Shown here: piece after piece, positions 2,015 through 62,671 of the stretch
Layout of the letters: each line of letters opens with the position of its first letter
Numbering within the stretch: position 1 is the stretch's first letter
Assembly: GCA_015075165.1 (NCBI GenBank)
Contig: JABTUY010000002.1
Span: 186,001-250,000 of the forward strand
Length of the DNA stretch: 64,000 nt
DNA from: Ideonella sp.
GTDB lineage: Bacteria > Pseudomonadota > Gammaproteobacteria > Burkholderiales > Burkholderiaceae_C
Direction: 5' to 3'
The notes under the pieces: model-generated
What the model saw: the letters and a program-made list of their open reading frames with translations, nothing else
The model's database searches: none
Told to the model about the DNA's origin: nothing
Position numbers and translations under genes: made by a program

Positions 2015-2437
2015 ATGGAATGCAACGTGCACTGGGTGCGCGACGCCGGCATGGCGTTCGTGGCCGAGACCGGCAGCGGCCATCTGCTGACGATGGATGC
2101 CTCACCTGCCGGCGGCGGCCGCGACCTGGCGCCGCGGCCGATGGAAACCGTGCTCGCCGGCGCCGGCGGTTGCACCGCCTACGATGTGGTGACGATCCTG
2201 CGCCGCGGCCGCCACGATGTACGCGGCTGCAGCGTGAAGCTGCGGGCCGACCGCGCCGAGGCCGACCCGAAGGTGTTCACGCGCATCCACCTGCACTTCA
2301 CGGTCAGTGGACACCGCCTGAGCACCGATGCGGTGGCGCGGGCGGTAGCGCTGTCGCACGAGAAGTACTGTTCAGCGACGATCATGCTGGCGAAGACCGC
2401 GGCGGTGACGGTCAGTCACGAGGTGGTCGAGGTCTGA
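2015..2437 (+). CDS. OsmC/Ohr family protein
   Basis: A 140-residue OsmC-family protein. Members are dimeric cytoplasmic thiol peroxidases or related proteins that reduce organic hydroperoxides with a pair of cysteines. Here Cys53 in AGAGGCTAYD and Cys119 in HEKYCSA occupy the two expected positions. The overall pattern (MECNVHW start, ETVLAGAGGC, SHEKYC) is closer to the YhfA-like subgroup than to classical Ohr. The natural substrate of that subgroup is not established. It is transcribed divergently from ilvA, with 137 bases between them, and convergently with coq7. Confidence 0.85.
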   Translation: MECNVHWVRDAGMAFVAETGSGHLLTMDASPAGGGRDLAPRPMETVLAGAGGCTAYDVVTILRRGRHDVRGCSVKLRADRAEADPKVFTRIHLHFTVSGHRLSTDAVARAVALSHEKYCSATIMLAKTAAVTVSHEVVEV

Positions 2438-2509
2438 AGTTCGCGCGCGCGGCACGGGCATCGGTCGCGCCGGCGCAGCTTCGATCGCGCGAAAGCGCCG
2501 CCGAAACAA

Positions 2510-3127
2510 TCAGACGTGGTGCGCGGTCGTCGTCATCACACGCGCGGCCAGTCGCATCGCCAGCCGCGCCGGCGCCGGCAGCGGCCGGCCACCGCGCTGC
2601 TGCGCGGCCGCGGCATGCGCGGCCTCGTCGCGCTTCATCTGCTCGACGATCGCTCGCGACGCCGCATCGTGCTCGGGCAGGCGCTCGAGGTGGCCTGCCA
2701 GATGCTGCTCGACCTGGCGCTCGGTCTCGACGACGAAACTCAGACTCCAGCGATCGCCGGCCAGGCCGGCGAGCAGGCCGATGCCGAACGCGCCTGCATA
2801 CCACAGCGGGTTGAGCACACTGGTGTGGGCACCGAGTTGTTCGAGCCGCTGTTCGGTCCACGCGAGGTGGTCGGTCTCCTCGCGCGCGGCGTGCCGCATC
2901 GCTTCGCGCAGAGCAGGCGAGCGCGCGGTCAGCGCCTGCGCCTGGTACAGCGCCTGTGCGCAGACCTCGCCGACGTGATCGACCCGCAACAGCGCGCCGG
3001 CCAGGTGCCGCTCGGCAGGCGTGAGTTCGGCTTCGGCAGCCGTGGGGACCGGGCGCGCCGCATGCGCGCCGCCCGTCAGCGTGCGCAGCGCGTCGTCGGC
3101 GCCGGCGATCCAGTCGTCAAGGCCCAT
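2510..3127 (-). CDS. coq7: Coq7-type 3-demethoxyubiquinol 3-hydroxylase
   Basis: A 205-residue di-iron monooxygenase that hydroxylates 2-polyprenyl-3-methyl-6-methoxy-1,4-benzoquinol late in ubiquinone biosynthesis, at the inner face of the membrane. The ferritin-like iron ligands are visible: Glu in RVDHVGE, the EETDH motif, Glu in [10 protein letters not shown] and the RDEAAHA motif. A hydrophobic stretch ([16 protein letters not shown]) fits membrane association. The start at MGLDDW is the conserved N-terminus; longer upstream starts read through the porin promoter region. Ubiquinone supports an aerobic proteobacterial lifestyle. Confidence 0.95.
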
Positions 3128-3258
3128 GCGGGCGAGCTTATCGGAATCCCTGGGGTGGGTTTTCCAGAGCGCGACGCCGATTCGAACGCCCGCGGCCCGT
3201 AGGCCTTGTTTCGCGTTGTTGCCAGACAACAGAGCAGCGCGGTTTGCGGGCGAAGTCT

Positions 3259-3287
3259 TTGCATCGGCCGAGGGCCTCTGGTGCAAT
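3259..3287 (+). promoter_or_regulatory. Possible sigma70 promoter of the porin gene
   Basis: TTGCAT and TGCAAT hexamers are separated by 17 bases, about 105 bases upstream of the porin ATG. The match is only partial (3/6 and 4/6). It is offered because a highly expressed porin must have a promoter in this 265-base gap. Confidence 0.3.
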
Positions 3288-3312
3288 AGCCGCAACTTCC
3301 GCTGAGGAGGTT

Positions 3313-3365
3313 GGCCTGATCGGCCTCGCCGACCATCGGTGCGGCGGTCCGAACGGATCAGGGCC
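3313..3365 (+). other. Stem-loop in the porin 5' leader
   Basis: GGCCTGATC at 3313-3321 can pair with GATCAGG plus CC at 3356-3365, with one bulged G. Inside it, CGCCGACC (3327-3334) can pair with GGT-g-CGGCG (3338-3346). The structure ends 13 bases before the Shine-Dalgarno AAGGAGAT at 3378-3385. It could stabilise the mRNA or gate translation; the function is inferred. Confidence 0.45.
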
Positions 3366-61975: not shown

Positions 61976-61997
61976 GGCCTTGGGGCCCGCTGCCGCG

Positions 61998-62468
61998 CTA
62001 CCGCTTCGCAGCGGCTGCGGCGGCCTGCAGCACCGTCAGGATGCCGGCGTCGCCGAGCGAGCGCGCACTCGACAGCTCGCCGCGGCGCGTGGAGTAGACC
62101 ACTTGGCCGTCGGGCGATACGACGACGGCCGCCGGGATGCCCTGCTTCGCCGGGTTGCCGAAACGCGCGGCGATGTCGAGGTTGCGATCGAAGTTGCCGA
62201 CGTCGACCTTCACCACCTTGAAGCGGCTGCTGGTGAAGCGGGCGATGTCGCCGCGGCCCATCGCGCTGTCGAGCGCGCGACAGTCGGGGCACCAGTTGGC
62301 ACCGAACACGATCAGCAGCGGCTTGCGCTCGGCCTTCGACGTGGCGAGCGCCGCGTCGACCTCGCCATGTGCATCGGCCGATTCGTTGTAGAGTGGGCCG
62401 GCGGCAGCCGCAGCGATCGACACCAGCACCGCGCCTAGGATGCGCGCGATCCAGGTGGCAGAGGTCAC
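61998..62468 (-). CDS. Exported thioredoxin-fold protein with a CPDC active site
   Basis: A 156-residue protein with an N-terminal membrane or signal segment (ILGAVLVSIAAAAAGP) and a thioredoxin domain. The redox motif is NWCPDCRALD (Cys60, Cys63). KVDVGNFDRNLDIAARFG and GIPAAVVVSPDG, with the cis-proline, complete the fold. CPDC is unlike thioredoxin CGPC and occurs in periplasmic thioredoxin-like reductases. GTG 62468 is the chosen start. It lies 19 bases downstream of a tRNA-Cys-like gene on the same strand. Confidence 0.82.
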   Translation of the reverse strand: MTSATWIARILGAVLVSIAAAAAGPLYNESADAHGEVDAALATSKAERKPLLIVFGANWCPDCRALDSAMGRGDIARFTSSRFKVVKVDVGNFDRNLDIAARFGNPAKQGIPAAVVVSPDGQVVYSTRRGELSSARSLGDAGILTVLQAAAAAAKR

Positions 62469-62487
62469 GACGGCTACCCAGCGATGT

Positions 62488-62561
62488 TGGAGACGCGTGT
62501 TGGAGTTGAACCAACGAACTCGGGGTTGCGGCTCCGAGGCATTCCACTCTGCTACCGCGTC
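62488..62561 (-). tRNA. tRNA-Cys(GCA)-like gene with an aberrant anticodon arm
   Basis: A 74-base minus-strand sequence folds as a tRNA. The acceptor GACGCG pairs with CGCGTC, discriminator T73 (typical of tRNA-Cys) is followed by an encoded CCA, and the T-arm is perfect (GTTGG-TTCAACT-CCAAC). T8, A14, G15, G18, G19, C48 and the T-loop bases are all present. Aligned by length with E. coli tRNA-Cys, the anticodon is GCA (62529-62527). The canonical anticodon stem does not pair; instead CTCGG pairs with CCGAG in a shifted register, and the base before the anticodon is C in place of the near-universal U33. It may be a degraded tRNA-Cys or a non-canonical tRNA. Confidence 0.65.
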
Positions 62562-62567
62562 GGTGCA

Positions 62568-62597
62568 AGTATTCCGGCTGCAGGTGGTGTGATTCAA
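62568..62597 (-). promoter_or_regulatory. Candidate promoter of the tRNA-like gene
   Basis: On the minus strand TTGAAT (62597-62592) and AATACT (62573-62568) are spaced by 18 bases. They sit 6 bases before the tRNA 5' end, so transcription could begin at or near the mature 5' nucleotide. Confidence 0.45.
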
Positions 62598-62671
62598 CCC
62601 CCCATTCAAGCGAATCAAGCGAGCGACGGCGTAACCACTTGTTGATCGAGCGCAGTTGCGCCTCGACGCAG

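What the first reader, a model, noticed from the sequence alone, without database searches (positions are those of the whole stretch)
62488..62561. tRNA-Cys-like gene with shifted anticodon stem and C in place of U33
Acceptor, D- and T-arm tertiary bases, T73 and an encoded CCA are all present, total length is exactly 74, and a fair promoter abuts the 5' end. The anticodon arm, however, pairs only in an extended, displaced register (CTCGG/CCGAG, 10-base loop, or a longer stem with a 6-base loop around GCA). Decay usually does not spare everything but one arm.
Basis: partly seen in the sequence, partly recalled or inferred. Interest (0 to 1): 0.65.

Follow-up and report, generated by a model that had tools for sequence, protein, structure and literature searches.

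The report
Foreign tRNA-Cys with bulged anticodon stem
A bacterium carries, beside its normal cysteine tRNA gene, a second and strongly diverged one with a single extra base in its anticodon stem; it sits in a small inserted patch of DNA next to a thioredoxin gene and is most likely a recently damaged foreign tRNA rather than a new kind of molecule.

Summary
The feature is real: a 74-nt tRNA-Cys-like gene on the minus strand (62561 to 62488), scoring 37.6 bits as a tRNA (cut-off 29). The "shifted register" has a simpler reading. It is a normal 5-bp/7-nt anticodon arm (TCGG-G / CCGCAAC / CCCGA) flanked by a C26:G44 pair, with one extra A (62533) in the 5' strand. C33 is real but occurs elsewhere: the identical loop CCGCAAC is found in tRNA-Cys genes of tRNA-rich viral contigs, and C33 is the only tRNA-Cys I detected in four Thermoplasmata genomes. 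The cell has a canonical tRNA-Cys and one CysRS. The odd gene differs from that tRNA-Cys at 26 of 73 sites yet keeps 19 of 20 pairs (neutral expectation 10.7 +/- 2.0; P about 1e-4). It therefore diverged under selection for the fold and is not an old pseudogene of the resident copy. Four congeners have an empty site, lacking the ~0.7-kb insert (thioredoxin-like gene plus tRNA). No orthologue of the odd arm was found in ~400 genomes each of the family and order. Best reading: a laterally acquired, possibly phage-type tRNA-Cys with one recent indel, probably poor or inactive in decoding.

The parts
62488..62561 (-). odd tRNA-Cys-like gene, 74 nt, encoded CCA, U73
   Evidence: ARAGORN; RF00005 37.6 bits
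62519..62538 (-). anticodon arm CTCGGAGCCGCAACCCCGAG: C26:G44 plus 5-bp stem TCGG(A)G/CCCGA, loop CCGCAAC
   Evidence: sequence; fold energies; alignments
62533..62533 (-). the extra base (A) in the 5' strand of the anticodon stem; the only indel against the 73-nt accessory tRNA-Cys genes
   Evidence: alignment A3
62527..62529 (-). anticodon GCA
   Evidence: sequence; alignment
62530..62530 (-). C33 in place of U33
   Evidence: sequence; loop survey
62499..62515 (-). T arm GTTGG-TTCAACT-CCAAC, fully paired; three pairs changed on both sides relative to the resident tRNA-Cys
62568..62597 (-). weak promoter-like TTGAAT-18-AATACT upstream of the gene (by eye)
   Evidence: sequence; not reported by the consensus scan
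61998..62468 (-). thioredoxin-like protein (Pfam Thioredoxin_7, 5e-12) with a signal-peptide-like N-terminus; start codon GTG 19 nt after the tRNA 3' end, same strand
61976..62671 (.). approximate ~0.7-kb insertion holding thioredoxin-like gene and tRNA, absent from the equivalent site in four congeners

Best explanation
An extra, laterally acquired tRNA-Cys gene, possibly of the C33 type carried in phage tRNA clusters, that lies in the same ~0.7-kb insertion as a thioredoxin-like gene. It evolved as a working tRNA in another genome (inferred from its preserved pairing) and then gained a single base in the anticodon stem. If transcribed, it can still fold as a cloverleaf and carries U73 and GCA for CysRS. 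The bulged or mispaired 18-nt anticodon stem-loop, C33 and the G7.A66 mismatch probably make it a poor or inactive decoder. The cell does not need it, because an ordinary tRNA-Cys and a single CysRS are present. Shown: paralogy to tRNA-Cys, preserved pairing, one-base insertion, empty site in congeners, no orthologue in the sampled relatives. Inferred: phage-type origin, order of events, loss of decoding.
For: Among all tRNAs collected the nearest isotype by far is tRNA-Cys, and in family genomes the best R1 match is ordinary tRNA-Cys, at most 58.9 bits against 110 for itself. 19/20 pairs kept despite 26/73 substitutions from the resident tRNA-Cys; neutral P about 1e-4. Gapless alignment except for one base to 73-nt accessory tRNA-Cys genes in two other families. 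The loop CCGCAAC occurs in 14 distinct viral tRNA-Cys, nearly all in clusters of 9-30 tRNAs, and in none of 50 distinct chromosomal tRNA-Cys examined. Flanking genes are 10-30 bp apart in four congeners. Canonical tRNA-Cys and one CysRS in the genome.
Against: No close donor was found in phages or plasmids by blastn. C33 is rare in viral tRNA-Cys too: 0 of 64 distinct sequences in a sample not selected for position 33; the CCGCAAC examples were fished out with that pattern. The overall nearest sequences are bacterial U33 tRNA-Cys, so a bacterial donor plus two loop substitutions is nearly as good. No integrase or other mobility gene was seen beside it. Loss of function is not demonstrated.
Confidence: 0.55

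Rival explanations
1. A working, specialised accessory tRNA-Cys: the altered loop and stem make it resistant to tRNA-cutting toxins, as proposed for phage tRNAs, or let it read a four-base codon because its anticodon stem-loop is 18 instead of 17 nt (alternative parse: A31.C39 with 8-nt loop GCCGCAAC).
For: Selection on the fold; anticodon-loop mutations in phage tRNAs are argued to evade anticodon nucleases (PMC10264068); C33 is tolerated, being the only tRNA-Cys detected in four Thermoplasmata genomes; +1 frameshift suppressors such as SufB2 carry one extra anticodon-loop base (PMC7803779).
Against: The extra base is found in no other genome sampled; weak promoter; G7.A66; an 18-nt arm with alternative folds; no partner synthetase.
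Confidence: 0.2
2. A neutral pseudogene copy of the cell's own tRNA-Cys.
For: Second-lowest tRNA score in the genome; solitary; resident tRNA-Cys present.
Against: Base pairing kept far above neutral expectation, with compensatory changes in acceptor, anticodon and T stems.
Confidence: 0.08
3. A cis-acting tRNA-like leader of the thioredoxin-like mRNA (processing by RNase P/E, or sensing of tRNA state).
For: Same strand, start codon only 19 nt downstream, no terminator found between them, both within one insertion.
Against: None of 34 loci with thioredoxin homologues has a tRNA or an R1 match within the ~1.5 kb held on each side.
Confidence: 0.08
4. An ordinary foreign tRNA-Cys in which the extra A is a sequencing or assembly error.
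For: A single-base difference explains the whole arm anomaly.
Against: Not in a homopolymer; draft of 99.97% estimated completeness; other departures (C33, G7.A66) remain.
Confidence: 0.07

Closest known systems
Viral tRNA-Cys with C33 (loop CCGCAAC) in tRNA-rich contigs, e.g. L216, L345, L351, L360
   Same: Loop C32 C33 G34 C35 A36 A37 C38 and inner pair G31:C39 identical; U73
   Different: They have ordinary uninterrupted 5-bp stems and nearly all sit in clusters of 9-30 tRNA genes
73-nt accessory tRNA-Cys in other families of the order (L276, L277, L289)
   Same: Short D-loop of the same length, TTCAA T-loop (two of three), an ordinary second tRNA-Cys found in each genome; two of them (L276, L277) have C26:G44
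   Different: No extra base in the anticodon arm, U33, fully paired 7-bp acceptor
Resident tRNA-Cys(GCA) of the genome (L010)
   Same: U73, GCA, 7/5 acceptor and T stems, T54-A58 motif
   Different: 26 of 73 bases differ; normal arm with U33; G15:G48 where the odd gene has G15:C48
selC* tRNA-Cys and allo-tRNAs (PMC7609411)
   Same: Non-canonical bacterial tRNAs, one group with Cys identity
   Different: Those have 8/4 or 9/3 acceptor branches and long variable arms; here 7/5 and a short variable loop
Pseudo-tRNA such as tRNA-Other of Bacillus cereus (PMC3399842; abstract only)
   Same: Extra tRNA-like gene beside foreign DNA, not needed for translation
   Different: No resistance or cell-wall phenotype is known here; sequences were not compared

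Membership tests
tRNA (Rfam RF00005) | covariance score at or above gathering threshold | tested here: met
   37.6 vs 29 bits
tRNA (canonical cloverleaf) | uninterrupted 5-bp anticodon stem with 7-nt loop and U33 | tested here: not met
   extra A62533, C33
tRNA-Cys | U73 and anticodon GCA | tested here: met
   sequence and alignment; determinants from PMC9976931
tRNA-Cys | minor acceptor determinants G2-C71 and C3-G70 | tested here: not met
   A2-U71; C3-G70 is present; listed in PMC9976931
tRNA-Cys | G15:G48 core pair (E. coli; reported as conserved in only a few bacteria) | tested here: not met
   G15:C48 by alignment; PMC9976931
tRNA-Cys | aminoacylated by CysRS in vivo | not testable with these tools
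   single CysRS present
selC* tRNA-Cys / allo-tRNA | 8/4 or 9/3 acceptor branch, long variable arm | tested here: not met
   7/5 branch, 4-nt variable loop; alignment; PMC7609411
C33-type viral tRNA-Cys | loop CCGCAAC closed by G31:C39 | tested here: met
   (viral examples were selected with this pattern)
C33-type viral tRNA-Cys | located in a tRNA cluster or phage genome | tested here: not met
   solitary gene in a chromosomal contig
Pseudogene of resident tRNA-Cys | pairing lost in proportion to divergence | tested here: not met
   19/20 pairs kept, neutral mean 10.7

The most novel reading that the evidence does not exclude
A functional natural tRNA-Cys whose 18-nt anticodon stem-loop and C33 let it escape a tRNA-cutting toxin or promote +1 frameshifting at cysteine codons, kept together with a thioredoxin-like gene as a small acquired module.
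Probability: 0.1. Interest if true: 0.7.

Novelty: new member of a known kind. Interest (0 to 1): 0.3.

Why it matters
It shows how a single inserted base can make an extra tRNA look like a new architecture, and gives a clean test case (fold kept under selection, one arm broken, empty site in sister species) for telling acquired tRNAs from decayed ones. If it proved active, it would be a natural bulged-stem C33 tRNA and a direct test of the idea that loop-altered tRNAs evade anticodon nucleases.

Tried and rejected
A blastn search of the gene against plasmids and phages gave nothing. A search of ~100 relatives by DNA gave only 23-nt T-arm matches to tRNA-Met. The exact odd arm TCGGAGCCGCAACCCCGA in viral contigs hit only stretches in which no tRNA was found, and the odd D arm hit nothing. 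A hypothesis that C33 marks phage tRNA-Cys in general was rejected: 0 of 64 unselected viral sequences have it. An integron attC site was considered by eye and rejected because the core sites lie in the wrong order. selC*/allo-tRNA membership was rejected on arm lengths.

Full report
What is there. It is the second-lowest of 47 tRNA matches in the genome. It has an encoded CCA, U73, a TTCAA T-loop, a fully paired T stem, and an acceptor stem with one G7.A66 mismatch.

The anticodon arm. The sequence is C26 TCGG(A)G CCGCAAC CCCGA G44. Read with the A at 62533 as an extra base, it is an ordinary five-pair stem with a seven-base loop (C32 C33 G34 C35 A36 A37 C38) and an added C26:G44 pair. The three candidate folds (A bulged; A.C mismatch with 6-nt loop; open 10-nt loop) lie within 1.2 kcal/mol, so energy does not decide. 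The evidence for an insertion is comparative: 73-nt accessory tRNA-Cys genes in two other families of the order align to the whole gene with this one base as the only gap.

Identity. Of the several hundred tRNAs collected, the nearest isotype is tRNA-Cys by a wide margin. In 401 genomes of the family, the best matches to a covariance model of the odd gene are ordinary tRNA-Cys genes (30 best loci checked), at no more than 58.9 bits, against 110 for itself. The genome has a normal tRNA-Cys (L010) and one full CysRS, so the odd gene is dispensable in principle.

Not an old pseudogene of the resident copy. Against the resident tRNA-Cys it has 26 substitutions in 73 sites, 14 of them in stems, yet 19 of 20 pairs form. 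Random substitutions leave 10.7 +/- 2.0 pairs, and 19 or more in about 1 of 10,000 trials. Five pairs changed on both sides and still pair (2-71, 31-39 and the three outer T-stem pairs), and a mismatch of the resident copy at 27-43 is a pair here. The alignment treats the A as an insertion, and the resident gene need not be the ancestor, but the conclusion that the sequence diverged under selection for the fold does not depend on details. The damage (extra A, G7.A66) is small and probably recent (inference).

Origin. In four congeners the neighbouring convergent genes (a WS/DGAT acyltransferase and a TPR protein) end 10-30 bp apart with no thioredoxin-like gene or tRNA between them. A fifth has an unrelated ~1.1-kb gene there. 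The odd tRNA and the thioredoxin-like gene (61998-62468) therefore lie in a ~0.7-kb gain specific to this genome among those held. Loss in the others is less parsimonious but possible, and whether both parts came in one event is inferred. Thioredoxin homologues elsewhere in the family and order (at most 53% identity) have no tRNA beside them. A donor was not found.

C33. In 50 distinct chromosomal tRNA-Cys examined, position 33 is always U. The exact loop CCGCAAC occurs in 14 distinct tRNA-Cys from viral contigs, nearly all in clusters of 9-30 tRNAs. These were fished out with that pattern; in an unselected viral sample none of 64 has C33. C33 is thus a rare variant recurring in viral tRNA clusters, which suggests but does not prove a phage-type source. 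It is compatible with function: in four Thermoplasmata genomes the only tRNA-Cys found has C33 (the search model is not exhaustive).

Function. Expression is uncertain: no consensus promoter by scan, only a weak TTGAAT-18-AATACT by eye. The thioredoxin-like start codon is 19 nt downstream on the same strand with no terminator found between, so a joint transcript is plausible (inference). CysRS determinants U73 and GCA are present; G2-C71 and G15:G48 are not. The most likely state is a foreign tRNA-Cys that can still fold but decodes poorly or not at all. The main rival is a specialised tRNA that evades anticodon nucleases, as argued for phage tRNAs (PMC10264068), or shifts frame, as SufB2 with its extra loop base (PMC7803779).

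Comparison. It is not a selC* tRNA-Cys or an allo-tRNA (arm lengths fail; PMC7609411). It belongs with known accessory, phage-borne or pseudo-tRNA genes, and differs by the bulged anticodon stem, seen so far in this one genome among ~400 of the family, ~400 of the order and 274 of the class (these samples overlap, use stricter filters and are not exhaustive).

Noticed in passing
G000:C22:428802-428905 (L038 73-176 minus; L506): A second odd tRNA-like gene: good acceptor, D and T arms but a ~38-nt insert between the anticodon-stem strands, just upstream of a NYN-domain protein and near a DUF1016/YhcG nuclease gene; ARAGORN does not report it, Rfam tRNA gives 36.4 bits. Possibly a tRNA-like RNA partner of an RNA-processing or defence locus.
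   Followed up: partly
L276, L277, L289 (handles G495, G065, G529): Solitary accessory 73-nt tRNA-Cys genes with a shortened D-loop in which one of the two conserved G18 G19 is missing, in three families of the order, each beside an ordinary tRNA-Cys elsewhere in the genome.
   Followed up: partly
L097, L110, L138, L166, L171, L191: Thermoplasmata tRNA-Cys with C32 C33 (loop CCGCAAG); in four genomes it is the only tRNA-Cys detected.
   Followed up: partly
L345-L362 (viral contigs): Recurrent C33/C38 tRNA-Cys (GCCGCAACCC core) in viral contigs with 9-30 tRNA genes; could relate to evasion of tRNA-Cys-cutting toxins.
   Followed up: no
L242 about 2150-3320 (handle G003): The same intergenic site holds an unrelated ~1.1-kb gene in another congener, so the convergent WS/DGAT-TPR gap accepts insertions repeatedly.
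   Followed up: no
L285 (handle G002, C371): A cluster of at least nine tRNA genes, several unusual, in a congener: a mobile-type tRNA array in the same genus.
   Followed up: no
L129 (Novosphingobium olei) 170-392: Three pattern matches (ATGC..CCGCAA..GGTTCRANYC) about 90 bp apart just after a tRNA-Thr; looks like a tandem repeat of tRNA-like pieces.
   Followed up: no
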